Source of the DNA: an uncultured Prevotella sp.
GTDB lineage: Bacteria; Bacteroidota; Bacteroidia; Bacteroidales; Bacteroidaceae
DNA: 11,146 nucleotides
Direction: 5' to 3'
NCBI GenBank assembly: GCA_905210845.1
Contig: CAJLYG010000093.1
Location: 1 to 11,146, forward strand
This document shows, piece after piece, positions 1 to 10,873 of this stretch. The translations under genes were made by a program, and so were the position numbers. A model generated the notes under the pieces. That model worked only from the letters and a program-made list of their open reading frames with translations, ran no database searches and had not been told where the DNA came from. Positions within the stretch are counted from its first letter, which is position 1; every line of letters begins with the position of its first letter.

Positions 1-2239
1 CGACGGGGGCGAATCCGATATCCGTAATGGCTGTCGTCTCCCATTTGATATTCCTGTTGGCATAAGCCGTCTGGGCATATCCCACGACCGTTCCATCAGA
101 AGATTTGGAGAAAGGATAGTCTGCAACGCTTGCAATCACAGCCTGATAAGGGTACAAGCCGATATTCTGGTTACCCAGCTCTCCCCAAGAACCTCTCAGT
201 TTGAAGTCGTCTAACCATTTCCAGTTCAATTTCTGGAAGAACGGCTCCTGTGTGATTCGCCATGCACCAGAGAAAGAGGGGAAGAAACCCCACCTGTTGT
301 CGCTGGCAATACGGGATGTGCCATCATAACGTGCATTTGCCTCAAACAAGTAACGTTCACGATAGTTGTAGTTCAGTCGACCGAAATAAGACTGGATCGC
401 CCAATCTTCCTCACCGCCACTGTTCGACCAGTTTGCGGTTGATCCCGCATTGATCACTGGCAATGGGAAAGCATATTCCTTCCTGTAAGCGCCCAATGTC
501 TCGTACTTCTCGTCCTCACGGTTGTAACCCAACATCAGTTCTACGTTATGGGCACCATCCATGAATGCCTGCTGGAATTTCAAATAAGAATACAGGTTCT
601 TATAGAACCGACGACCATCATTGACGGTCAAGCCCATCGTTCCCGTATCAAGCGTCCTGGTCTGCTCTCCCGTATGATAGTTATAAAGCGGGAATGTGCC
701 ACTGATAAATGTCTTATCCTTAGAATCTATCAGACGGGCAGCTCCCTTGGTGTACCATTCCAGGTTTTTCAGCAAATGGACAGAGACCCAGAGGTTGGCA
801 TTCAGGTCAAAACTTTTGTTCTTATTATTGACACCATAAGCAATAATAGCGGGCATATTCTTGTTGTAACTCTCAAAAGAATAGGCACTGCTCGTATAGC
901 GTCGTGTCCCTGATCCATCATCTGGCAGCCACGGCATATAGGTGGGAGCCTGTGACATGGATGACAAGAAGGCATCAGCTTGTCCGCTCTTGGGGGCCAG
1001 TCGGTCACCATACATCATTTCCGAATAGAAGCCGACCTTGATGAAATCGTTCAACTTCGCCGTCAGATTAGCCGTGACATTATACTTCTTATATTCGAAT
1101 CCTCGCAATGTACCAGGTTGATCGACATAATTTAGGGAGATATTATAGCTCGTCTTCTGGCCGGACCCGGCTACAGACAAGTTATGAGTCCATACAGTGG
1201 CCGTGTTGAACATATAGTCGAGCCAGTCGAAACTGGGATATTCGACACCCCTCTTGTTTGTATAGGCATCGATCTGATCTTGTGTATAGGCAAGACCAGA
1301 ACCTGAATTCGCCCATGCTAAGTTAGACAATTTCATATAGGTAGGAGAGTCCGTCACCAGGTCATACATCCGGGTAGGCGTATGGAAGCCGACATTCCCA
1401 TTGTAAGAGAAGACGACTTTATCGGGTACACCGGAGCCTTCTTTCGTCGTCACGAGGATGACACCATTAGCAGCACGGGCACCATAGATGGCAGCCGAAG
1501 CCGCATCCTTCAAGACGGAAACGCTCTCAATGACGCTTGGGTCAAGATTTGACAAAGAGCCAGGCACTCCGTTAATCAAGATCAACGGATCGGATCCTGC
1601 ACTGGAGAAAGTTCCTTGGCCACGAATACGCATGGATACAGATTCATTACCCGGCTGTCCAACACTTTGGTTGACACGCAGTCCGGGGATGACACCTTGC
1701 AATAAGACGGCTGAATTGGCAACTGGGCGCTTACTGATCTCATCACCAGAGACTGCCGCAACGGATCCGGTCAGGTTGGCTTTTTTCTGGGTACCATATC
1801 CCACAACAACCACTTCGTCTAACGACTTGGTATCATCGGATAGCACAATCTGGCTATTCGTACCTGCCTTAATCTGCTGGGGTTCAAATCCGATGAAAGA
1901 GATCTCCAATTCGCATCCTAAAGGAGCTTCCAAGGAGTATCGCCCATCGACATCTGTTACCGTACCGTTCTGGGTACCTTTCTGCATGACTGTGGCACCA
2001 ATGACAGGCTCTCCGTTCTTGTCGACAACGCGACCTGTCACCGTTACCTTTCCTTTTTGGTTTCCATTCTGCGGAGTCTGCGGATAGCTTGAGAACGCAC
2101 CGGCTCCGGAGTAGTTTGACTTGACTATCGAGGATGATAGTCGGGCAGCATGGTTTTCGGCGGAAGCATAAGACGGAAATCCTATGCAAGCCCCAAGGGA
2201 TGCTACCAAAATAACATGTTTGTTTAAATAACTCATCAT
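1..2239 (-). CDS. SusC/RagA-type TonB-dependent receptor, 3' end missing
   Basis: This is an outer-membrane glycan importer of the SusC class, which pairs with a SusD lipoprotein and takes energy from TonB. The frame is open from the ATG at 2237-2239 to the window edge, giving 746 codons of an expected 1000 or so. A signal peptide (about residues 1-27, ending ASA) is followed by a carboxypeptidase-D-like regulatory domain (about 66-134, with TGRVVDKNGEPVIGATV), a TonB box (DEVVVVGYG, 141-149) and a plug domain ending in the family signature KDAASAAIYGARAANGVILV. The strands after that belong to the barrel, including LRGSWGELGNQNIG near the edge. A second ATG follows at 2234-2236, so the start is uncertain by one codon. 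No terminator or TAnnTTTG promoter is visible in the 76 bp separating it from the upstream 959-aa gene, so cotranscription is likely. SusD is expected off the left edge. The transported glycan cannot be read from the sequence. Confidence 0.96.
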   Translation of the reverse strand, partial: MMSYLNKHVILVASLGACIGFPSYASAENHAARLSSSIVKSNYSGAGAFSSYPQTPQNGNQKGKVTVTGRVVDKNGEPVIGATVMQKGTQNGTVTDVDGRYSLEAPLGCELEISFIGFEPQQIKAGTNSQIVLSDDTKSLDEVVVVGYGTQKKANLTGSVAAVSGDEISKRPVANSAVLLQGVIPGLRVNQSVGQPGNESVSMRIRGQGTFSSAGSDPLILINGVPGSLSNLDPSVIESVSVLKDAASAAIYGARAANGVILVTTKEGSGVPDKVVFSYNGNVGFHTPTRMYDLVTDSPTYMKLSNLAWANSGSGLAYTQDQIDAYTNKRGVEYPSFDWLDYMFNTATVWTHNLSVAGSGQKTSYNISLNYVDQPGTLRGFEYKKYNVTANLTAKLNDFIKVGFYSEMMYGDRLAPKSGQADAFLSSMSQAPTYMPWLPDDGSGTRRYTSSAYSFESYNKNMPAIIAYGVNNKNKSFDLNANLWVSVHLLKNLEWYTKGAARLIDSKDKTFISGTFPLYNYHTGEQTRTLDTGTMGLTVNDGRRFYKNLYSYLKFQQAFMDGAHNVELMLGYNREDEKYETLGAYRKEYAFPLPVINAGSTANWSNSGGEEDWAIQSYFGRLNYNYRERYLFEANARYDGTSRIASDNRWGFFPSFSGAWRITQEPFFQKLNWKWLDDFKLRGSWGELGNQNIGLYPYQAVIASVADYPFSKSSDGTVVGYAQTAYANRNIKWETTAITDIGFAPV

Positions 2240-2315
2240 AGGTTTTTTATGGTTTTAATAATAAATGTGGAATTATTCATGATGTGATGTTCGGTTTTCA
2301 TCTATTTTCCATTCA

Positions 2316-5195
2316 TCAGGGTATGATCTTCTCATCTTCATACTCTTCATTTTCATTCTGATAGAGTCCATCCAAGTAATAAGATGACCCATGCAAAGAA
2401 GAGAGAATTTGCAACAGTTCTGCTTTCGATGCTGTCTTTGCCAAAGGGTAGTTATAGTTGAAGACCTTGTCATTGATGTCCTTTTGATACCCTGACACGA
2501 ATATCCTTCCTACTCCTGCAGCCTGGAGCAAGGACAGGTTCTTCTGTAAATTCTCGCGGTCTGCTGCAAGCATTGACAGAGACACGGCATAGACGAAGTT
2601 GTCTTTGTTGACATCCCTGACCACTTTCAGCGATCCCTCCACGTCACTATGCACAGTACCCGAGAGCGGACGGAAGACAACCGTAATGCCTTCTTCCTTG
2701 GCCAGATCAGCCAATTTCTGGTATGTTTCGATGAGTGAGGCATCAAATTTCTCTGAAGTGAAGTTATTCTCAATCGGCCGCATGGACGATATCAACAACT
2801 CATCTGCCCCTAAGAACTTCATCTTCGCTATGATAGACTGGATCCTGTGGATACTGGCTTCATAGACGGACGGATCATTATTGACGATGCGCAGGTCGGG
2901 AAACAGGTTAATGCCCGACGCCAAGTCTACAGAGATACCCACGTGCTGCCGTTTCAGCCAGTCGCCCTCTTCCCTCAATCGCGCGGTATCCCTGCGATCA
3001 ATGTATTTCCAGTCGACCACCGCGCGGTTATAATGCTGGAAGAAGGTCGGGCGCAACAGGATCTCTTTTTGCAGATCGCTCGTCTCTCTCATGCTCAAGG
3101 CACAATGACGAGTAAGGGGATTGCCTACCGATTGACCTAACATCTTTACATTCTCTCCTGTAGTGCGAATGCTGAATATCCTGACCCCGCCTCCTGCAAT
3201 GTCTGTCTTGGTATGGGTTCCTAAATGGGTTCCCCGCATGACCTTTGGGACATATCCAGCTGAGTTAGATGACTCATCTGGGATCTGCAGCTCCTTGATG
3301 GATAGGATCTTCCCCACATTCGACTTTAAGTTCATGGGGACTTGCTTCCACTGACTGTTGGTAAGTATGACCGTGTAATGGGTAGGATCCTTCACGCAGG
3401 TCACCATGCTCAACTCGGGATTCGCGCTAAACAGGGACTGACTGCCAAAGAGATGTCCCAAATATGCCTTCACATGTTTCAATAGGGGATAAGGAGTGGG
3501 CAAGGGACGATCCTCCTTGACCTTTACTGTGCCAACTCTTGGAGTCTGTCCTACCCCAAAGGGAACGGTGATGACCGTCACCTGCCCTTCCCCAGCAGCC
3601 TTTTCCACGATGGTTGGTCGCCCTTGACAGTTGGCGAGAACCGTACAACCACTTCCTTCCAACAATGCGTCAACTTGGAAGCTGTCTGTTTCCTGATAGC
3701 TGTCCTGCAAGTAGCTGACGGACGATGGCGGACAAGTCTGCGAACTGCCGGCTACCTGTATTCCACACAGACCGTGCTCAAAATTACGCAAAGACCCAGA
3801 GGTAATGACGAGGTGTCCTCCTGCCTGTACATAAGCTTCCAGCTTATCACGCAGTTCATGACTGTTCCTGACCTCATCTGCCACCACGATCACAGGATAT
3901 CGTTTCATGAGCCAAAGTGGGGCATCACTCAACAGGCAATCGGCAATATCTCCATACGGTGTTGGTGCCAAGAAACCCCGTTCATCATGATAGTAGGAAG
4001 CATCCTGATAGCCCGGATAAATCACATCCAAGATCCCATCTGTCATATAGTCAGATGTCTCGTACGGCAAGCTTCCCCATACCCTATAAGCATTCCCAGT
4101 ATACAAATGGCGTGGGAATGTCCATCCAGAGAAAAAGTCATTCAACAATGCCACAGGGGTGTACATGACACCAGGAAGACCATTCTTATGGATCCACTTG
4201 ACCGCATTCTGCTGGATCCTACCGATCGGACTCAACGTGTCTCCATTGGCATACAGTGAGCCTTCAAATCCTGCCATGATACAGTTATAGAAGAAATGAT
4301 TGTATATCAATCGTTTCAACAGGCTCAATGAGGTTCCCTTCCACGGACTACCTGCATTATAATCATTGTCATCATCCTTGATGGTCTTGGGATTATAGTC
4401 CTTATAGCCCCATCGATTCCATACAGATGCATTGCCAAACCAGCTGACACCATATTGCTTGCCCGCGCCTCGGATAAAGGAGTAATAGATCTGTGTGTTC
4501 GGGAGTCCCTGCGCAGTCTCTGCCCCAATCAAAGCGTAAGTACCTTCTTTCAGGTAATAATGGCCGTAGTTGAGAGAGACAAGGGTAGAGAGATGATTTC
4601 CTAAGATATCCGACATCTCTTGGAAATGGTGCTGGAATTTCAGGTATTGTTGCTTCCTGTCCATCCCTCCGGGATACTGGCGAGAGGCAAAGCTACCAAT
4701 ATATCGCCCGTCCTGCTCCCCATTATCCATTCCAAGCCATCGGTTTCCCAATTTTGCCTGGAACATGTCCAACACCTTACGGGGAGCAGTGAACTGCTTC
4801 CATGGGCCACCTGGCCCTGAGCCAGGAACAAATCCCCAAAGATCAAAAAGGTATAGGTTACGGGATGCGAGATAATCCGTGATCTCGCTGACATTCTTTT
4901 CGAACATAAAAGAATAATTCGGCCAGATCACATTACCTAATCGGTCTCTGTCCACATATTGCCGGATATCCGCCCGATAGTTGCCAGTCAGGTTTCTTAG
5001 GGATGTAAAAGCAATCATTCCGTTAAACAAAGAGAGGTCTGGGCTCTTAACGGAATGGCGGTTATAATCTGGGTTCTCCTTAGGAATCATATAATAAGGA
5101 TACACCTTTTTTGTCACTTGCGCTTGTGCTGGCATCGTCTTAAAAGACATGAGCATCAACACAACGATGGCGATGGTTTGTATAAAGTGTCTCAT
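2316..5195 (-). CDS. Large secreted multidomain protein, putative glycan-processing enzyme
   Basis: I do not recognise this as a named family. The chosen ATG (5193-5195) gives 959 aa. The frame could begin with a TTG at 5222, but that codon lies inside the -7 promoter box. The N-terminus (MRHFIQTIAIVVLMLMSF...PAQAQ) is a signal peptide, so the protein is exported. Numbering from this ATG: residues about 30-420 look like an alpha/beta glycosidase-type region with acidic candidates in GMDNGEQDGRY (about 155-165) and LIGAETAQGLPN (about 222-233). Residues about 425-470 (YPVIVVADEVRN...YVQAGGHLVITSG) resemble the glutamine-amidotransferase-like domain of some beta-galactosidases. Residues about 750-940 (GISVDLASGINLFPDLRIV..., ADELLISSMRP, GITVVFRPLSGTVHS) resemble a xylose-isomerase/AP-endonuclease-2 barrel, but metal ligands typical of that fold are not evident. 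It is first in the probable operon with susC, suggesting action on the imported glycan. Domain calls are by eye; catalytic activity is unproven. Confidence 0.85.
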   Translation of the reverse strand: MRHFIQTIAIVVLMLMSFKTMPAQAQVTKKVYPYYMIPKENPDYNRHSVKSPDLSLFNGMIAFTSLRNLTGNYRADIRQYVDRDRLGNVIWPNYSFMFEKNVSEITDYLASRNLYLFDLWGFVPGSGPGGPWKQFTAPRKVLDMFQAKLGNRWLGMDNGEQDGRYIGSFASRQYPGGMDRKQQYLKFQHHFQEMSDILGNHLSTLVSLNYGHYYLKEGTYALIGAETAQGLPNTQIYYSFIRGAGKQYGVSWFGNASVWNRWGYKDYNPKTIKDDDNDYNAGSPWKGTSLSLLKRLIYNHFFYNCIMAGFEGSLYANGDTLSPIGRIQQNAVKWIHKNGLPGVMYTPVALLNDFFSGWTFPRHLYTGNAYRVWGSLPYETSDYMTDGILDVIYPGYQDASYYHDERGFLAPTPYGDIADCLLSDAPLWLMKRYPVIVVADEVRNSHELRDKLEAYVQAGGHLVITSGSLRNFEHGLCGIQVAGSSQTCPPSSVSYLQDSYQETDSFQVDALLEGSGCTVLANCQGRPTIVEKAAGEGQVTVITVPFGVGQTPRVGTVKVKEDRPLPTPYPLLKHVKAYLGHLFGSQSLFSANPELSMVTCVKDPTHYTVILTNSQWKQVPMNLKSNVGKILSIKELQIPDESSNSAGYVPKVMRGTHLGTHTKTDIAGGGVRIFSIRTTGENVKMLGQSVGNPLTRHCALSMRETSDLQKEILLRPTFFQHYNRAVVDWKYIDRRDTARLREEGDWLKRQHVGISVDLASGINLFPDLRIVNNDPSVYEASIHRIQSIIAKMKFLGADELLISSMRPIENNFTSEKFDASLIETYQKLADLAKEEGITVVFRPLSGTVHSDVEGSLKVVRDVNKDNFVYAVSLSMLAADRENLQKNLSLLQAAGVGRIFVSGYQKDINDKVFNYNYPLAKTASKAELLQILSSLHGSSYYLDGLYQNENEEYEDEKIIP

Positions 5196-5219
5196 GATAC
5201 ATGTTTTTACCACAGTTTG

Positions 5220-5227
5220 CAAAGATA
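5220..5227 (-). promoter_or_regulatory. -7 promoter element of the 959-aa gene/susC operon
   Basis: On the minus strand this reads TATCTTTG, an exact match to the Bacteroidetes -7 consensus TAnnTTTG, followed by CAAA as in the aldo/keto reductase promoter. It lies 24 bp upstream of the ATG at 5195, so the leader would be short. No TTTG is present 19-21 bp further upstream, which would fit a promoter that needs an activator. Confidence 0.65.
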
Positions 5228-5270
5228 TAGAAAATAATAAAAACGTTATGGGGGGGGACTAAAAAATGAT

Positions 5271-5284
5271 CGTAACCGATTACG
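5271..5284. promoter_or_regulatory. LacI-family operator-like palindrome upstream of the 959-aa gene
   Basis: The site reads CGTAACCGATTACG, a 14-bp near-perfect palindrome with the central CG typical of LacI-family operators. It differs at only two central bases from the palindrome beside the lacI gene (8439-8452). Its edge is 43 bp upstream of the -7 box at 5220-5227, so its centre is near -61. Binding by the LacI protein encoded at 7404-8423 is inferred. Confidence 0.7.
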
Positions 5285-5349
5285 TAAAGAAACTCTACAA
5301 AGAATCACTTATGCCCGAAGAAAGACAAAGGATCACTACTTAGAAAGAC

Positions 5350-5409
5350 AAAAGTGCCCTATCCTGACAAGAAAAGTCCCTCACAAGAGAATCTTGCAGG
5401 ATAAGACAC
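5350..5409 (-). terminator. Rho-independent terminator after the GH16 gene
   Basis: On the minus strand, 12 bases after the GH16 stop codon, a 13-bp stem (GTGTCTTATCCTG with CAGGATAGGGCAC, including two G-U pairs) is extended by CAAGA/TCTTG across a one-base bulge. The loop is about 19 nt and TTTT follows. The stem separates GH16 transcription from the next gene, whose own promoter lies downstream of it. Confidence 0.75.
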
Positions 5410-5421
5410 CTTGCAACTTGA

Positions 5422-6501
5422 TTATTTCTGCCGATAATATCTCACATAATCAATGTCCATCTTCACCACTTCTTGGGGTTTGAGGCTAACCTCTCCAACC
5501 CATTGTCCACCCAATTGGGCACTGAGAATGACGTAGTAATCATAATGGTCGAATGGGAATTGTTTCTCAACAACAGGCTTGATGCGCGGATAGGTATAGG
5601 AGGCAGCCCCTCCATTCACCGAATAGACGACACTATCTGGATAGACCTCCACGCTATAGACATTGAATCCATCGCGATCAATGGGTGGCATATAGTGATT
5701 CTTAGGATTGGTCTTGTTGACAAGATTAGTGTACTCGGTATGAGCTGTCTGGTAAGCGTAGTTATCAAAATTGAGATGCTCCATCATGTCTAATTCCCCA
5801 TGGTCACTATAACGGTTGGACTCTTCCTGTGGGAGCAGCCAGATCGCGGGCCAGAATCCCTTTGCGCAAGAGAAGCGGGCACGTACCTCGATTTTCCCCA
5901 ACATGAAGGCGCGTTTGTCTTTCCCCCAAAGGCCACCAGTCAGATACTTGGAAGTGTCATTCGGAAGAATGGTATTTGCCATGCCCTTCAAGGTTAACAA
6001 CCCATCCTTCATCTCAAAAAGGCGGTCGTCATCGGTCATGTCATCACACCAGTTGCCACGGTCCCTGGGCACTTTCGACCATACCCGCCAATCAGGCTGA
6101 GTGCCATTGAACTCATCACTCCAGATAATTTTCCATTTTCCACCTGCCTGTTCTTCACGCGGGACAAAGTCGCTAAGGACGACCTTGTACTGCTCCGTGC
6201 GTTTCTTCTGCTTTAAAGTGAAGGTCACCTCTTTTGGCCACTTGCCAATCAACGTCTTCGGGTTCGGCGTAATGGTAGCACCTTCTGCCAATTGGTAGTT
6301 CACGCCCGTGACCAGACTGCCATCAGCGATATGCCTAATGATAGCCGTATGACCATCGGAGGAGAGTTCCGCTGGAGACACATCATCCCACACTTCCAAC
6401 AAAAAGGATTTCATTAAACTCTGAGGATTACCCGCTGCACGGGCCGTTGCGCATAGGCATAAAGCAAGAGCGCATGCAAAAATCATTCTTTTCATCATCA
6501 T
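5422..6501 (-). CDS. Secreted GH16 family endo-glycanase
   Basis: This is a retaining endo-acting hydrolase of glycoside hydrolase family 16 (laminarinases, agarases, porphyranases, carrageenases and mucin O-glycanases). The 359-aa protein has a signal peptide (MMMKRMIFACALALCLCATARA), an immunoglobulin-like N-terminal domain of about 80 residues, and a GH16 domain from KIIWSDEFNG to the C-terminus. The catalytic motif GELDMMEH places the nucleophile at E236, the helper at D238 and the acid/base at E241. The substrate-groove segment FWPAIWLLP (about 216-224) and the late SAQLGGQWVG segment also fit the family. I chose the ATG at 6499-6501. The frame extends up to 6585, but that start lies upstream of the promoter at 6544-6574; 6528 is a possible alternative. 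There is no lipobox, so it is probably periplasmic or secreted rather than a surface lipoprotein. The substrate within GH16 is undetermined. It has its own promoter and terminator, apart from the susC operon. Confidence 0.93.
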   Translation of the reverse strand: MMMKRMIFACALALCLCATARAAGNPQSLMKSFLLEVWDDVSPAELSSDGHTAIIRHIADGSLVTGVNYQLAEGATITPNPKTLIGKWPKEVTFTLKQKKRTEQYKVVLSDFVPREEQAGGKWKIIWSDEFNGTQPDWRVWSKVPRDRGNWCDDMTDDDRLFEMKDGLLTLKGMANTILPNDTSKYLTGGLWGKDKRAFMLGKIEVRARFSCAKGFWPAIWLLPQEESNRYSDHGELDMMEHLNFDNYAYQTAHTEYTNLVNKTNPKNHYMPPIDRDGFNVYSVEVYPDSVVYSVNGGAASYTYPRIKPVVEKQFPFDHYDYYVILSAQLGGQWVGEVSLKPQEVVKMDIDYVRYYRQK

Positions 6502-6543
6502 GGTAATAATACAATTTGGTTTCGTCATATAAGTTTTCGGTCG

Positions 6544-6574
6544 CAAATATAAAGTATTTCTTGCTTCCATGCAA
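6544..6574 (-). promoter_or_regulatory. Bacteroidetes-type promoter of the GH16 gene
   Basis: On the minus strand the -7 element is TATATTTG (6544-6551) and a -33 TTG lies at 6572-6574 with a 20-bp spacer, the usual geometry for this phylum. It predicts transcription starting near 6540 and rules out the upstream start codon at 6585. Confidence 0.75.
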
Positions 6575-6580
6575 TACTTT
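6551..6580. repeat. Inverted repeat AAAGTATT/AATACTTT across the GH16 promoter
   Basis: Perfect 8-bp arms at 6551-6558 and 6573-6580 with a 14-bp spacer span the region between the -7 and -33 elements of the GH16 promoter. The inner half-site AGTATT/AATACT also occurs in the palindrome at 8462-8479. It could be an operator that blocks RNA polymerase; function is inferred. Confidence 0.4.
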
Positions 6581-6591
6581 AGCACAAAAAT

Positions 6592-6610
6592 ATGATCAAA
6601 AAGTGATCAT
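6592..6610. promoter_or_regulatory. Palindrome ATGATCA-N5-TGATCAT upstream of the GH16 promoter
   Basis: Two 7-bp arms flank AAAAG. The centre (6601) is about 53 bp upstream of the centre of the -7 box, which places it near -61, a common activator position. The sequence is unlike the CGTAA palindromes, so a different regulator is likely. Confidence 0.5.
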
Positions 6611-6611
6611 T

Positions 6612-6653
6612 TTGTATGAGTAAGCATAAAAATTGCATGAGTAAGCATAAAAA
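6612..6653. repeat. Two tandem copies of a 21-bp unit upstream of GH16
   Basis: Units at 6612-6632 and 6633-6653 are identical except at one base (T at 6615, C at 6636). Each contains ATGAGTAAGCATAAAAA. The 21-bp period is two helical turns, as in direct-repeat sites bound by dimeric activators. The second copy runs into the A-tract of the Hsp20 terminator. Confidence 0.8.
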
Positions 6654-6682
6654 AAGGCGGGAGGTTTACGCCTTCCGCCTTT
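6649..6682 (-). terminator. Rho-independent terminator of the Hsp20 gene
   Basis: On the minus strand AAAGGCGGAAGG pairs with CCTCCCGCCTTT (one mismatch) around a 6-nt loop, followed by a run of seven T in total. It begins 17 bp after the Hsp20 stop codon. Confidence 0.85.
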
Positions 6683-6699
6683 CTTATAGACCGCAATCG

Positions 6700-7137
6700 T
6701 TATGCGACTTCGATCTTCTTTACGTTCTTGTCTTCCTCAGCCTTTGACAGTTTCGGCATCTCAATTGTCAAGACACCATCATTGACCTTTGCTGCGACTT
6801 TATCCTTATCGACATTCTCTGGGAGCTCATAGCTCTGCTCAAAGCTGCTATAAGAGAACTCACGACGCAGATAATGCTCTTTCTTGTTCTCATCCTTCTT
6901 GTCTGTCTTGTGCTCGAAGGAAACATTCAAGCAACCATCTTTATCGATGTTCATCTTTACCTCATCCTTCTTCAAGCCAGGAGCTGCAATGTCCATAATA
7001 TAAGCTTTCTCGTTCTCTTTTACGTTCACTGCTGGTGCTGTGGCATTCATGCGAGGCATCAAATCAGTATCAAAGAAACTATCATCAAACCAATTGTTTA
7101 ACCAATTATCATTATTTCTACGAGCTAACAACATCAT
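6700..7137 (-). CDS. hsp20: Small heat-shock protein, Hsp20/alpha-crystallin family
   Basis: This is a cytoplasmic ATP-independent holdase that binds unfolding proteins and passes them to DnaK/ClpB. The 145-aa length is normal. A short N-terminal arm rich in N, W, F and D (residues 1-30) precedes the alpha-crystallin domain (about 35-130), with APGL at 52-55 and the signature GVLTIEMPK at 121-129. The C-terminal IEV (142-144) matches the IxI/V motif used in oligomer assembly. The start is the ATG at 7135-7137, preceded by GGAGG with a 5-nt gap. An upstream in-frame TTG overlaps that ribosome-binding site and is rejected. A second ATG follows directly. It has its own terminator and is probably a single-gene unit unrelated to the glycan genes around it. 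Confidence 0.95.
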   Translation of the reverse strand: MMLLARRNNDNWLNNWFDDSFFDTDLMPRMNATAPAVNVKENEKAYIMDIAAPGLKKDEVKMNIDKDGCLNVSFEHKTDKKDENKKEHYLRREFSYSSFEQSYELPENVDKDKVAAKVNDGVLTIEMPKLSKAEEDKNVKKIEVA

Positions 7138-7168
7138 TAAAACCTCCAATTATTTGTTTTTGATCTCC

Positions 7169-7184
7169 AAATCTTATCAGATTT
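7169..7184 (-). other. Small hairpin in the Hsp20 leader
   Basis: AAATCT and AGATTT form a perfect 6-bp stem with loop GATA on the minus strand, ending 21 nt before the GGAGG ribosome-binding site. It does not itself cover the ribosome-binding site. A role in temperature control is possible but not shown. Confidence 0.35.
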
Positions 7185-7239
7185 TTCAATCGATTATCCA
7201 CAAGCGATGTGTTCGTGGATGCTTACCTCCGACCAACCT

Positions 7240-7336
7240 CCGTTAGGCTCTTTCGAGCTTCCCTTTAGCCTTGTCCTCAACGGCTTGCACTGATCCTTAT
7301 GCAAGGAATGTGCCAAGGGGAGGGTCCTGCCATTCC
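7240..7336 (-). ncRNA. Hairpin-rich region between lacI and hsp20, possible leader or small RNA
   Basis: The 266-bp gap between lacI and hsp20 has no convincing gene but contains several inverted repeats. Plus-strand coordinates: GGAATG (7305-7310) with CATTCC (7331-7336); CTTGCA (7284-7289) with TGCAAG (7300-7305); CCGTT (7240-7244) with AACGG (7279-7283); and AGGCT (7245-7249) with AGCCT (7267-7271). Read on the minus strand, the element inside is GCTC-GAAA-GAGC, a GNRA tetraloop hairpin that competes with the AGGCT pairing. The GNRA loop favours the minus strand. I do not recognise a known RNA family, and no clear promoter was found. Confidence 0.3.
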
Positions 7337-7403
7337 TGACATGAAAAGATGACGATCTGGCATCAATTCTTAAAATATTTTCAACTTTACTGACAACTTT
7401 CGA

Positions 7404-8423
7404 CTATCCCTTCTTCGTGCTGTCTCTCACTTGAAGCAAGGAAGGGATCACCAATTGCCGGACTTTCTGCTTGCCCTGGATCTTCTCCAGCAACAACTCA
7501 AAGGCGGCACGCCCCATCTTCTGTGGCTGCAGGCAAACGGAAGTCAACTTTGGGAAGACATAGTTGGAATGGAGTTCATCCGTATATCCAATCAAGGAGA
7601 TATCCTCTGGTATCTTCAACTGATGGCGGCGGATCACCTCCATGGCTGAGAAGGCAAGCGTATCGTTCATGGCGAGGATGCCATCAGGCGGATTATCTAA
7701 AGCCAACAACTGCTCCGTTGCCTGGCAACCGGACTCAAACTCGAGCTTCTGGCAAACGACGAGGGAGCGGTCAATGGGGATATGATGAGACCGCAATGCT
7801 TCCAGGTACCCGTGTTTCCGACGCTTAACGATATCCAGATAGTTCTCGCCTCCGATAAAGGCTACGCGCTTGCAGCCATGGTCAAGAAGGTAATTCGTGG
7901 CTTTCTCAGCTGATACGTCCCCGTCAGCGATGACCGAGGAAAACTCATGAGTCAGGCAAGTACGGTCGAAAAAGACAAGGGGAATATTCAATGATTGCAT
8001 AGAAAGGAAATGCGAATAGTCCGTTGTCTCCTGAGACAAGCAGGCAAGGATGCCCTCTACTCTCATTCCGGCAAGATTGTTCAGGTTGGACTTCTCCTTT
8101 TCCTCATTCTCATCAGAAGAGGTGATAATGACGAAATATCCTTTTTCCGTAGCCGCATCTTCAATTCCCTTGAGGATAGCAGAATAGAAATAGGTGACAA
8201 TATCCGGTACAACGACCCCTATGGTACGAGGGGCGTTGTAGCGCAAGCTGATCGCAAACGGATTCGGGCGATATCCCATCTGGCGGGCTGTCTTCTGCAC
8301 CTTCTTGCAAAGCTCCTCGGAAATCTCCCTACTATTCTTCAAGGCACGGGAGACCGTCGCCACTGAGACATCCAACCGCCGGGCTATATCCCGCATGGAC
8401 ACGTATCGTTTATTTTCCATCAT
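7404..8423 (-). CDS. LacI-family transcriptional regulator
   Basis: This is a sugar-responsive DNA-binding regulator of the LacI/GalR family, 339 aa, the usual length. The helix-turn-helix is at residues 11-31 (RDIARRLDVSVATVSRALKN), the hinge helix at about 53-61 (PNPFAISLR), and a periplasmic-binding-protein-like effector domain follows from about 66 (RTIGVVVPDIVTYFYSAILKG) to the end, with GILAMNDTLAFSAMEVIRR and DISLIGYTDE typical of the family. The ribosome-binding site AAAAGGAG (8427-8434) is 3 nt from the first ATG (8423) and 6 nt from the second (8420), so the second may be used. A palindrome at 8439-8452 lies 15 bp upstream of the start, which suggests autoregulation. It is divergent from the sugar-oxidation genes and likely controls them and the 959-aa gene/susC operon, which carries the same palindrome. 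The effector is unknown. Confidence 0.96.
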   Translation of the reverse strand: MMENKRYVSMRDIARRLDVSVATVSRALKNSREISEELCKKVQKTARQMGYRPNPFAISLRYNAPRTIGVVVPDIVTYFYSAILKGIEDAATEKGYFVIITSSDENEEKEKSNLNNLAGMRVEGILACLSQETTDYSHFLSMQSLNIPLVFFDRTCLTHEFSSVIADGDVSAEKATNYLLDHGCKRVAFIGGENYLDIVKRRKHGYLEALRSHHIPIDRSLVVCQKLEFESGCQATEQLLALDNPPDGILAMNDTLAFSAMEVIRRHQLKIPEDISLIGYTDELHSNYVFPKLTSVCLQPQKMGRAAFELLLEKIQGKQKVRQLVIPSLLQVRDSTKKG

Positions 8424-8437
8424 GCACTCCTTTTCTT

Positions 8438-8453
8438 ACGTAACGCATTACGT
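8438..8453. promoter_or_regulatory. LacI-family operator-like palindrome in the lacI/aldo-keto reductase intergenic region
   Basis: The site reads ACGTAACGCATTACGT, a 16-bp near-perfect palindrome. Its 14-bp core matches the site at 5271-5284 except at the two central bases (GC here, CG there). It lies just upstream of the lacI ribosome-binding site, and its core is 44 bp upstream of the -7 box of the divergent aldo/keto reductase gene. It could repress lacI while acting at about -62 on the other promoter. Confidence 0.7.
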
Positions 8454-8461
8454 TCAGTTTT

Positions 8462-8479
8462 TAGTATTTGGGAATACTA
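8462..8479. promoter_or_regulatory. Second palindrome TAGTATT-N4-AATACTA before the aldo/keto reductase promoter
   Basis: Perfect 7-bp arms flank TGGG. The centre is 25 bp from the centre of the LacI-type palindrome and 30 bp upstream of the centre of the -7 box, so it overlaps the place of the -33 element. It may be a second regulator's site; nothing identifies which. Confidence 0.45.
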
Positions 8480-8496
8480 CTTTAACCATTGTCTCG

Positions 8497-8504
8497 TACT
8501 TTTG
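8497..8504 (+). promoter_or_regulatory. -7 promoter element of the sugar-oxidation operon
   Basis: TACTTTTG matches TAnnTTTG exactly and is followed by CAAA, as in the promoter at 5220-5227. It is 27 bp upstream of the ATG at 8532. No TTTG occurs at the usual 19-21-bp spacing; the nearest (8467-8470) is 26 bp away and inside the palindrome at 8462-8479. Confidence 0.65.
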
Positions 8505-8531
8505 CAAAGGAATTTCAAGCTACGAAGATCA

Positions 8532-9464
8532 ATGGAATATAGAACATTAGGACATACTGGAATGAAGGTCTCCTCCCTCTCCTTCGGTGCCTCATCTTTA
8601 GGCGGAGTCTTCCACGACCTCAAGGAAAAGGAAGGCATCCAGGCCGTCCATACGGCAGTTGAGAACGGTATTAATTTTATCGATGTCTCACCTTATTATG
8701 GTTATTATAAGGCTGAGACCGTGTTGGGCAAAGCACTCAGGGAGATCGAGCGCGACCGCTATTACCTTTCTACGAAGGTGGGGAGGTATGGAAAGGACGG
8801 CCATAACACATGGGACTACTCTGCCAAGCGCGTCACAGAAAGCGTCTACGAAAGCATGGAACGCCTGAATGTCGACTACCTCGACCTCATCAACGTACAT
8901 GACATCGAGTTCGCCGACCTGCATCAGGTCGTCGACGAGACGCTGCCTGCCCTTGTAGAACTCAGGGATAAGGGAGTGGTCAAGCATGTGGGCATCACCG
9001 ACCTGCAGTTGGAGAATCTGAAATGGGTGATCGAACAGGTACCTGAGGGCACCGTTGAGACCATTCTGAACTTTTGCCATTACTGCCTCTGCGATGACAA
9101 GCTGATAGACTTCCTCGATTTCTTTGAGCATCATCATATTGGGGTGATCAACGCATCGCCATTCTCTATGGGACTGCTCACGGAGCGAGGCGTTCCCGAT
9201 TGGCATCCGGCACCCAAACCTTTGGTGGAGGCTTGCCAAAGAGCTGCTCAATATTGCCACGAGCAGCACTATCCCATCGAGAAGCTCGCCATCCAATATT
9301 CCACCCAGAACCCGCGCATTACCACCACCTTGTTCAGTACAACCCGCCCAAAGAACGTATTGGAGAACATCCAGGCTGTGGGCGAACCTGCACCGCAAGA
9401 GCTCGTCATCAAGGTGAAAGAGATGATTGGCGAGCAGCAACGCGTATCCTGGGCAAATACTTAA
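8532..9464 (+). CDS. Aldo/keto reductase, probable L-fucose/L-galactose-type 1-dehydrogenase
   Basis: This is an NAD(P)-dependent (alpha/beta)8-barrel oxidoreductase of 310 aa. The catalytic tetrad is visible as D51, Y56 (FIDVSPYYG), K82 (LSTKVGRYG) and H123 (NVHDIEF). MEYRTLGHTGMKVSSLSFGASSLGG at the N-terminus and the style of the active-site segments recall the L-galactose dehydrogenase/L-fucose dehydrogenase/D-threo-aldose 1-dehydrogenase group, which oxidises the anomeric carbon to a lactone. The start at 8532 is preferred because the upstream in-frame TTG at 8502 falls within the -7 box. It is first in an operon with an amidohydrolase 12 bp downstream, matching the dehydrogenase-lactonase order of oxidative fucose degradation. 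The substrate is inferred, and D-arabinose or L-galactose is as possible as L-fucose. Confidence 0.9.
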   Translation: MEYRTLGHTGMKVSSLSFGASSLGGVFHDLKEKEGIQAVHTAVENGINFIDVSPYYGYYKAETVLGKALREIERDRYYLSTKVGRYGKDGHNTWDYSAKRVTESVYESMERLNVDYLDLINVHDIEFADLHQVVDETLPALVELRDKGVVKHVGITDLQLENLKWVIEQVPEGTVETILNFCHYCLCDDKLIDFLDFFEHHHIGVINASPFSMGLLTERGVPDWHPAPKPLVEACQRAAQYCHEQHYPIEKLAIQYSTQNPRITTTLFSTTRPKNVLENIQAVGEPAPQELVIKVKEMIGEQQRVSWANT

Positions 9465-9476
9465 TTCCATCTTGCC

Positions 9477-10409
9477 ATGCATAACTATTATCCGATCATC
9501 GATGCCCATGCCCACCTCTGGCTGAAGCAAGACACTGTGGTGGACGGGAAACGGATTCGGACCTTGCACAACGGAAGGTCGGAATTCATGGGCGAAGAAC
9601 GCCAGATGCTCCCGCCGTTTATGACGGACGGTAGGAATACTGCTGAGGTTTTCTTGTCGAACATGGACTATGCCCAGGTCTCGGCTGCGGTCATCGTACA
9701 GGAATTTATCGATGGGATGCAGAATGACTACTTAGCAGAAGTGTGGTCACGCTATCCCCATCGCTTGAAGGTGACGGGGCTGCTCCCCTATCTTCAATCT
9801 GTCAATACCACAAAGGTGGAAGAGCTACTCAGCCAAGGATTCTGTGGTATGACCATTCCCGGTCACCGATTGAGGCGCGAGGATGGCAGTAGACTGGCAC
9901 TGAACGACCCAAATATGATGCAGATGTACCAGGTCATGAATGCACATCATGCGATCCTGTCCCTTGCCCTTGAACCTGGTACGGGACAGATTGCCGAAGT
10001 AGAAGATATCATCCATACCTTTCCTGGCCTAAAAATAGCCATTGCCCATTTCGGGATGGTAGGCAGCGAGGGATGGATGGAGCAAATCCGACTGGCAAGA
10101 CATAAGAATGTCATGATAGAGTCTGGCGGCATCACCTGGCTATTCAATGACGAGTTCTATCCTTTCCCCGGCGCCATCCGCGCCATCCGCAAAGCCGCTG
10201 ATGAGGTAGGAATAGAGAAGTTGATGTGGGGCTCGGACTATCCACGCACCATTACCGCCATCACCTATCGCATGTCATACGACTTTTTCACGAAAAGCGC
10301 GGCATTCAATGATGAGGAGAAGCGTCTTTTCTTAGGAGAGAACGCACGGCGATTCTACCAGTTCGAGGATCCCGTCCATCTACCTTATATTAAGAATATG
10401 TCAGAATAA
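9477..10409 (+). CDS. Amidohydrolase-family protein, probable sugar lactonase
   Basis: This 310-aa cytoplasmic TIM-barrel hydrolase belongs to the amidohydrolase-2 group, which includes L-fuconolactonase and 4-sulfomuconolactonase-like enzymes. The metal-site motif HxH is at H11 and H13 (IIDAHAHLW), further ligand candidates are H191 (IAIAHFGMVG) and the acidic D254 in WGSDYPR near the end of the barrel. There is no signal peptide. It follows the aldo/keto reductase by 12 bp and precedes the zinc dehydrogenase by 35 bp, so the three are one transcript. In this setting hydrolysis of the aldonolactone made by the reductase is the most economical role. Other members of the family are decarboxylases or amide hydrolases, so the exact reaction stays inferred. 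Confidence 0.88.
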   Translation: MHNYYPIIDAHAHLWLKQDTVVDGKRIRTLHNGRSEFMGEERQMLPPFMTDGRNTAEVFLSNMDYAQVSAAVIVQEFIDGMQNDYLAEVWSRYPHRLKVTGLLPYLQSVNTTKVEELLSQGFCGMTIPGHRLRREDGSRLALNDPNMMQMYQVMNAHHAILSLALEPGTGQIAEVEDIIHTFPGLKIAIAHFGMVGSEGWMEQIRLARHKNVMIESGGITWLFNDEFYPFPGAIRAIRKAADEVGIEKLMWGSDYPRTITAITYRMSYDFFTKSAAFNDEEKRLFLGENARRFYQFEDPVHLPYIKNMSE

Positions 10410-10444
10410 AAAAGATATCTGATCGATTAAAACAGCTATAAACA

Positions 10445-10873
10445 ATGAAAGCCATACAAATAGCAGACCTTCAGGATTTGAGGGTCGTTGATGTGGAAAA
10501 GCCCCAGCCACGAGCTGGAGAGGTATTATTGAAAATCCATTATGTAGGATTCTGCGGTTCCGACCTCAATACTTATTTAGGTCGCAATCCCATGGTCAGG
10601 ATGCCTGTCATCCCTGGTCATGAGGTAGGAGCCGTCATTGAGGCATGCGGGGAGGGCGTAACTGCCGACCTGCAAGAGGGCATGACCGTTACTCTAAATC
10701 CTTATACCAACTGCGGGCACTGTGCTTCCTGCCGCAATGGGCGTGTCAATGCCTGTGAGCACAATGAGACCTTAGGCGTACAGCGTAATGGCGTGATGCA
10801 GGAATATGCCGTGATCGCAGCGGAGCCACCAGACTGTCAGATGTGGAAATCAGATGCATTTTCTTTCGAATAA
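10445..10873 (+). pseudogene. Truncated zinc-dependent alcohol/polyol dehydrogenase
   Basis: Only the N-terminal GroES-like part of a medium-chain dehydrogenase is present: 142 aa against about 340 in the family. Visible residues are the catalytic-zinc ligands C37 (GFCGSDL), H59 and E60 (GHEVG), and the structural-zinc cysteines C90, C93, C96 and C104 (NCGHCASCRNGRVNAC). Homology appears to stop after GVMQEYAVIAAE (about residue 127, near 10825). The last 15 residues do not look like the family, and the NAD(P)-binding Rossmann fold is absent from the following sequence. The start has AACA just upstream and lies 35 bp after the lactonase gene. The full-length enzyme would probably have oxidised a hydroxy group of the sugar acid in the same pathway. 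The protein is unlikely to be active. A deletion, a recombination junction or an assembly join could explain it. Confidence 0.8.

What the first reader, a model, noticed from the sequence alone, without database searches (positions are those of the whole stretch)
5220..8504. Matched LacI-type operators at the same distance from two promoters
CGTAACCGATTACG (5271-5284) and CGTAACGCATTACG (8439-8452) differ only at two central bases. The first is 43 bp upstream of TATCTTTG (5220-5227, minus) and the second 44 bp upstream of TACTTTTG (8497-8504, plus). If the -7 box is centred at -7, the palindromes are centred at about -61 and -62. Neither promoter has a TTTG at the usual -33 spacing. That geometry is typical of activators that contact the polymerase alpha subunit, and is unusual for LacI repressors, which normally cover the promoter. 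The regulator encoded at 7404-8423 may thus repress itself and activate two operons, linking glycan uptake with sugar oxidation.
Basis: partly seen in the sequence, partly recalled or inferred. Interest (0 to 1): 0.75.

Follow-up and report, generated by a model that had tools for sequence, protein, structure and literature searches.

The report
LacI regulator with class-I activator geometry
Two matching docking sites for a sugar-sensing regulator sit at the same distance upstream of two gene switches, and that distance is kept in related gut bacteria, which suggests that this regulator, from a family best known for turning genes off, turns them on.

Summary
In detail: two near-identical 14-bp palindromes lie 43 and 44 bp upstream of TAnnTTTG boxes of two operons; none of 2000 shuffles of the window gave this. 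The distance is under selection. Of 31 lacI-upstream regions examined (LacI at least 50% identical), 29 hold the palindrome; 29 of 29 have an exact TAnnTTTG 43-45 bp from it and none elsewhere from 10 to 99. Spacers are 30% identical, palindromes 82%. A T-run follows the palindrome in 17 of 18 dereplicated sites against 10 of 62 control promoters. Five further sites not upstream of lacI (one in the window, four in relatives) share the spacing. GCAAACGTTTGC sites of other LacI groups sit about one helical turn further out (35 of 53 at 60-62 bp from centre to box). Best reading: class-I-like activation by a LacI-family protein, linking glycan uptake (SusC operon) to L-galactose-type sugar oxidation. 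Activation is inferred; I have no expression data. The missing -33 box is not discriminating. Self-repression is plausible in some relatives, varies between clades and is unproven in the window.

The parts
5271..5284 (.). LacI-type operator 1, CGTAACCGATTACG, upstream of the 958-aa gene and susC
   Evidence: counterpart at L015:10591
5261..5266 (-). T6 tract between operator 1 and its promoter (A6 on the plus strand)
   Evidence: such a T-run follows the palindrome in 17 of 18 dereplicated relatives
5220..5227 (-). -7 box TATCTTTG of the glycan-uptake operon, 43 bp from operator 1
2316..5192 (-). 958-aa protein with a match to AP_endonuc_2 and a sub-threshold one to a GH42 trimerisation domain; first gene behind promoter 1 (start codon chosen by me)
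2..2239 (-). SusC-type TonB-dependent receptor (cut by the window end)
   Evidence: Plug, CarbopepD_reg_2
7404..8423 (-). LacI/GalR-family regulator
   Evidence: Pfam LacI + Peripla_BP_3; best match among solved structures is CcpA
8439..8452 (.). LacI-type operator 2, CGTAACGCATTACG, between lacI and the aldo/keto reductase gene
   Evidence: palindrome present in 29 of 31 lacI-upstream regions, the window included
8458..8462 (+). T5 tract between operator 2 and its promoter
8497..8504 (+). -7 box TACTTTTG of the sugar-oxidation operon, 44 bp from operator 2
8532..9464 (+). aldo/keto reductase, L-galactose-dehydrogenase-like
   Evidence: Pfam Aldo_ket_red; PDB 7lh6 L-galactose dehydrogenase, E 1.1e-153 over residues 1-310
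9477..10409 (+). Amidohydro_2 protein, possibly a sugar lactonase
   Evidence: weak match (23.5 bits, cut-off 400) to an L-fucono-1,5-lactonase model
10445..10873 (+). N-terminal part of a Zn alcohol dehydrogenase (142 aa, short)
   Evidence: ADH_N; matches only the first third of 330-390-aa models

Best explanation
The LacI-family protein encoded at 7404-8423 binds both palindromes and activates both operons from a fixed place: operator centred about 61-64 bp upstream of the transcription start, on one face of the helix, with the polymerase alpha C-terminal domain probably held on the T-tract between operator and promoter (class-I-like activation). It thereby ties uptake of a glycan (SusC operon) to oxidation of a released sugar of the L-galactose/L-fucose type. 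Shown here: palindromes, boxes, exact spacing, its conservation across diverged spacers, the T-tract, further sites with the same spacing, and sites of other LacI groups about one turn further out. Inferred: binding by this LacI (supported by covariation of the recognition helix with the half-site), activation, the alpha-CTD contact, the start sites and the inducer.
For: 29 of 29 sites upstream of lacI have an exact TAnnTTTG at 43-45 bp and 0 of 29 at any other distance 10-99; mean spacer identity over 406 pairs is 30%, palindrome identity 82%; 18 dereplicated spacers are 45 (9), 44 (8) and 43 (1) bp long; distance from palindrome to the start of the LacI match varies from 15 to 107 bp. Sites not upstream of lacI share the spacing: window 5271 (43), L015 10591 (43), L023 11018 (44), L003 11106 and L044 11089 (44, to a TTTCTTTG box). 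A run of at least four T within 14 bp of the palindrome: 17 of 18 against 10 of 62 control promoters, p = 1.3e-9. GCAAACGTTTGC with a box at gaps 15-75 in 251 genomes: 53 matches, 35 of them (in 18 genomes) at centre-to-box 60-62, none at 52-59; of the 30 distinct spacers in the loci held, 21 are at 60-62. CGTAAN4TTACG with a box at gaps 30-60 in 151 genomes: 11 of 26 at 43-45 bp, six of these not beside a LacI of the window's type. uxaB promoters: 43, 44 and 45 bp in L139, L160, L140, 44 in L083, 54 in L141. Recognition-helix residue tracks base 3 of the half-site: P with T in 12 of 12, S with C in 10 of 10.
Against: No expression or binding data. The LacI family models and structures that match best are mostly named repressors. 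Lack of -33 is not significant against controls (p = 0.44). Helix residue and half-site follow two main clades, so kinship is confounded; A goes with either base (2 C, 1 T). 11 of 53 matches and 13 of 26 lie outside both distance classes, at least two of them (L060, L063) inside coding sequence. The inner class is thin: of its 7 matches 3 are the nearer of two tandem boxes and 1 (L172) lies in a coding region. One LacI-adjacent palindrome (L174) has its nearest box at 39. 24 of 30 uxaB regions have no such palindrome at all, one has it without a box, one has a poorer site at 53. Many matches come from related genomes.
Confidence: 0.78

Rival explanations
1. LacI is an ordinary repressor that acts from upstream, by covering or displacing the alpha-CTD from the T-tract UP element, and the inducer sugar releases it.
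For: LacI-family proteins are usually repressors (general knowledge); the T-run starts 3-6 bp from the palindrome, so a bound dimer could interfere with it.
Against: Occlusion would not need a spacing fixed to within 2 bp, nor a second class about one turn further out with no match at 52-59. In the same family, where the operator covers a promoter (lacI side, box 17-18 bp on, TTTG inside the palindrome), it sits quite differently.
Confidence: 0.15
2. The palindrome is only an autoregulatory operator of lacI, and its distance from the divergent promoter is incidental.
For: In 11 of 14 loci with TTTG in the palindrome the operator overlaps a lacI -33 element; in the window it lies 15 bp from the lacI start codon.
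Against: Spacing to the divergent box is fixed while spacing to lacI varies from 15 to 107 bp; sites that are not upstream of lacI obey the same spacing.
Confidence: 0.03
3. Another transcription factor, not this LacI, binds the palindromes.
For: No footprint exists.
Against: The site accompanies lacI in 29 of 31 regions, has LacI-type symmetry, and covaries with the LacI recognition helix.
Confidence: 0.04

Closest known systems
CRP class I promoters of Escherichia coli (recalled)
   Same: Activator site centred near -61.5 or whole turns further, alpha-CTD placed between activator and core promoter
   Different: Here the protein belongs to the LacI family and the promoter is the Bacteroidota -7/-33 type; alpha-CTD contact not tested
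Cra/FruR and PckR, LacI-family dual regulators of Proteobacteria (passages seen in PMC4052901)
   Same: LacI-family proteins that activate some genes and repress others; for PckR this was predicted from site position
   Different: Global carbon regulators in Proteobacteria; no fixed-distance or one-turn rule in the passages seen
LacI-family KdgR, UxaR, UxuR, UxmR of Bacteroides (PMC3878776, passages, section 10)
   Same: LacI-family sugar regulators in Bacteroidota with predicted motifs; uxaB-type targets were met here too
   Different: The word activator does not occur in its main text and no promoter spacing is given in the parts seen; no L-galactose regulator is in its Table 2

Membership tests
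LacI/GalR family | N-terminal LacI HTH plus periplasmic-binding-protein-like sensor domain | tested here: met
   Pfam LacI 4.7e-14, Peripla_BP_3 1.5e-32
LacI/GalR family | Even palindromic operator near the gene | tested here: met
   29 of 31 lacI-upstream regions
LacI/GalR family | Protein binds this operator | not tested
   only covariation of helix and half-site
Class I activator promoter | Site centred upstream of the core promoter near -61 or whole turns further, at a fixed place | tested here: met
   (29 of 29); start sites assumed from the box at -12 to -5 in Flavobacterium psychrophilum (PMC9723704 passages)
Class I activator promoter | Distance changes only by whole helical turns | tested here: inconclusive
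   main classes 50-52 and 60-62 are 10-11 bp apart, but 11 of 53 and 13 of 26 matches lie outside both, and the inner class is thin
Class I activator promoter | A/T-rich alpha-CTD site between activator and core promoter | tested here: met
   T-run in 17 of 18 against 10 of 62 controls; binding of alpha-CTD itself not tested
Class I activator promoter | Transcription depends on the activator and on alpha-CTD | not testable with these tools
   needs genetics and in vitro transcription
Bacteroidota sigma-A promoter | TAnnTTTG -7 box | tested here: met
   both window promoters
Bacteroidota sigma-A promoter | -33 TTTG/TTG at 19-21 bp | tested here: not met
   absent in both window promoters by reading; present in only 15 of 62 controls, so weakly defining

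The most novel reading that the evidence does not exclude
In Bacteroidota much of the LacI family has become class-I-type activators: their operators stand at one of two places, about a helical turn apart, upstream of TAnnTTTG promoters, for L-galactose-type, galacturonate and (by my reading of gene sequences) starch regulons, for susC operons, and for an unnamed small RNA; clades have switched control of their own gene between repression (operator over the lacI -33) and activation (operator at the activating distance).
Probability: 0.5. Interest if true: 0.78.

Novelty: new variant of a known kind. Interest (0 to 1): 0.66.

Why it matters
If LacI-family regulators of gut Bacteroidota are activators, loss of the gene should silence, not derepress, its sugar pathway, and annotation by analogy with E. 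coli LacI would be wrong in sign for a set of carbohydrate regulons. The spacing rule also gives a genome-wide way to predict LacI targets and their direction of control, and a handle on how an activator may contact the Bacteroidota polymerase, whose promoters often lack a clear -33 element (47 of 62 control promoters had no TTG there). None of ten full-text searches turned up a statement of this in the listings and passages seen; most subscription papers are not in that library.

Tried and rejected
The -33 argument was tested and did not discriminate. A phylum scan with GTAAACGTTTAC gave matches in only 6 of 395 genomes and no usable histogram. A period test on the pooled distances was not informative (resultant higher at 12 than at 10.5). 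Searching the window's own genome was impossible. A palindrome scan around 45 LacI loci gave 61 palindromes, most without a box; it revealed the 60-62 class. uxaB: of 30 upstream regions, 6 hold a 14-mer of at least 9 of 10 points; gaps 43 (L139), 45 (L140), 44 (L160), 54 (L141), 53 (L142, a poorer site), none (L158); 24 hold none. Rfam gave no family for the candidate small RNA in four loci. Papers opened but not helpful: PMC10861873, PMC12125979, PMC10766802, PMC11495376, PMC12632263, PMC7366714 (passages only).

Rows dropped before counts: one search used 31 regions; L013 was left out (no upstream sequence), L014 and L023 had no palindrome there (L023 has one just downstream of lacI, 44 bp from a box), and the 27 more distant loci L031-L043 and L045-L058 were not part of it. 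In one search the strict pattern occurred in eight of those 27: L032, L037, L039, L040 and L042 with a box at 44-45 bp; L033, L038 and L055 without. One search used 25 of the 29 sites; L015, L025, L027 and L044 had no readable helix. The 12 LacI-linked promoters include one that faces lacI itself.

Full report
What is there. The window comes from a Prevotella-like bacterium; the relative with the most similar LacI is L015, uncultured Prevotella sp. RUG143 (95% identity; DNA 87% over window 1-5287 and 91% over 5415-10824). A LacI-family gene (7404-8423, minus) stands back to back with an operon of an aldo/keto reductase, an Amidohydro_2 protein and the start of a zinc alcohol dehydrogenase. The reductase matches an L-galactose dehydrogenase structure over its full length (7lh6, E 1.1e-153), so the operon probably oxidises L-galactose or a similar sugar; the lactonase guess rests on a weak match. 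Three kilobases away a second operon on the minus strand starts with a 958-aa protein and goes on to a SusC receptor.

Observation. Both palindromes, both boxes and both distances are as described. In 2000 dinucleotide shuffles of the window none had two such palindromes, and none had one with a box at 43-45 bp.

Conservation of the distance. LacI relatives were fetched from genome contigs (58 loci). In 31 lacI-upstream regions (30 loci with LacI at least 50% identical, and the window) the best-scoring 14-mer was chosen without looking at boxes; 29 reached 9 of 10 points. In 29 of 29 an exact TAnnTTTG lies 43-45 bp beyond it on the side away from lacI, and in 0 of 29 at any other distance between 10 and 99. 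The last 32 bp of the spacers are 30% identical on average over 406 pairs, the palindromes 82%; after dereplication 18 spacers remain, of 45 (9), 44 (8) and 43 (1) bp. The distance from palindrome to the start of the LacI match varies from 15 to 107 bp. So length, not sequence, is kept. Five sites that are not upstream of lacI follow the rule: window 5271 and L015 10591 (43), L023 11018 (44), L003 11106 and L044 11089 (44, to TTTCTTTG); those of L003, L023 and L044 lie just downstream of lacI, that of the window 3 kb away.

Promoter anatomy. A run of at least four T begins 3-6 bp beyond the palindrome in 17 of 18 dereplicated spacers; at the same place 10 of 62 control promoters have one (p = 1.3e-9). 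In 12 LacI-linked promoters the columns -41 to -36 from the box start are 58-92% T; controls are 71-85% A+T there. This is where, as I recall class I promoters, alpha-CTD binds DNA. The absence of a -33 TTG is not telling: 1 of 12 against 15 of 62 controls, p = 0.44.

Other LacI groups. A scan of 151 genomes of the family of G001 (Bacteroides congonensis) for CGTAAN4TTACG with a box at 30-60 bp gave 26 matches: 11 at 43-45 bp, 2 at 54, 13 elsewhere. Five of the 11 stand beside a LacI of the window's type (two of them loci already counted, L059 and L066), six do not; by my reading of the sequences three of the six precede uxaB and one a hexuronate transporter. A scan of 251 genomes for GCAAACGTTTGC with a box at 15-75 bp gave 53 matches: from centre to box, 35 (in 18 genomes) at 60-62, 7 at 49-51, 11 elsewhere, none at 52-59. 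In the 29 loci held from that scan, 30 distinct spacers remain after dereplication: 21 at 60-62, 3 at 50-51, 6 elsewhere. The window's own type sits at 50-52 on this scale, so the two main classes are 10-11 bp apart, about one helical turn. The inner class is thin: three of its seven are the nearer of two tandem boxes 11 bp apart and one lies in a coding region. LacI genes adjoin some of the 60-62 sites (L181, L184, L185, L190, L193, L194), and one LacI-adjacent site, L174, has its nearest box at 39. uxaB promoters with the site show 43, 44, 44, 45 and 54 bp, but 24 of 30 uxaB regions lack it.

Link to LacI. Where the helix could be read (24 loci and the window), the residue before TVSR is P in 12 of 12 with T at base 3 of the half-site as typed, S in 10 of 10 with C, and A in the remaining three (two C, one T, the window). 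The large groups are also clades, so this is support, not proof.

Own gene. Of 28 loci, 14 have TTTG inside the palindrome, and 11 of these have a lacI box 17-18 bp on, which makes that TTTG a -33 element at 19-20 bp; the operator would then cover the lacI promoter. Thirteen have no TTTG in it, and 13 of 13 have a near-consensus lacI box (TTTCTTTG or TTACTTTG) at 42-46 bp, the activating distance. L012, L016 and L018 have exact boxes at both places. L015 (the remaining locus) and the window show no lacI box between operator and gene. Autoregulation seems to have changed sign between clades.

Mechanism. A site kept at a fixed distance upstream of the core promoter, with a T-tract in between and a second class about one turn further out, is what one expects of a protein that touches polymerase. 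I therefore hold activation for likely (0.78), with an upstream-acting repressor as the main rival (0.15). Nothing here measures expression.

Literature. In PMC4052901 (passages) LacI-family proteins of Proteobacteria such as Cra and PckR activate some genes. PMC3878776 (passages; section 10) predicts four LacI-family regulators in Bacteroides; the word activator does not occur in its main text and no spacing rule is given in the parts seen. PMC12596196 has no mention of LacI in its main text. The ten searches showed no report of LacI-family class I activation in Bacteroidota in the listings and passages seen; not every listed paper was opened.

Noticed in passing
L024, L025, L027, L028 and L198-L206 (for example L024:9660-9945 minus): A probable small RNA: a stretch GAGTAATGAATAGTTGATAATAAGTTAGTTAGAAA, invariant in the four aligned loci, followed by what looks by eye like a hairpin of changing sequence and a T run. 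Its 24-base core is in 9 of 301 genomes (0 control hits); 10 of 13 copies have a LacI-type palindrome with a box at 44-45 bp, 3 (L198, L199, L205) do not. No Rfam family at gathering score in the four loci tested.
   Followed up: partly
window 5250-5257: A run of eight G lies inside the operator-to-box spacer of the SusC operon; L015 has a run of eight C, read along the operon, in the same spacer. Slippage there would change the spacing, so the promoter could be phase-variable.
   Followed up: no
window 10445-10873: The third gene of the oxidation operon is only the N-terminal 142 aa of a zinc alcohol dehydrogenase; similarity to L015 stops at 10824, so a recombination point may lie there.
   Followed up: partly
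L015:7582-8597: The lacI of the closest relative reads into a stop near its recognition helix; either an assembly slip or a broken gene.
   Followed up: no
L012, L016, L018 upstream of lacI: Two boxes in the lacI direction, 17 and 44 bp from the same palindrome, one overlapped by the operator and one at the activating distance.
   Followed up: partly
G566:C58, G622:C192, G134:C101: Tandem boxes 11 bp apart behind one palindrome, at centre distances of 50 and 61, so both classes at one promoter.
   Followed up: no
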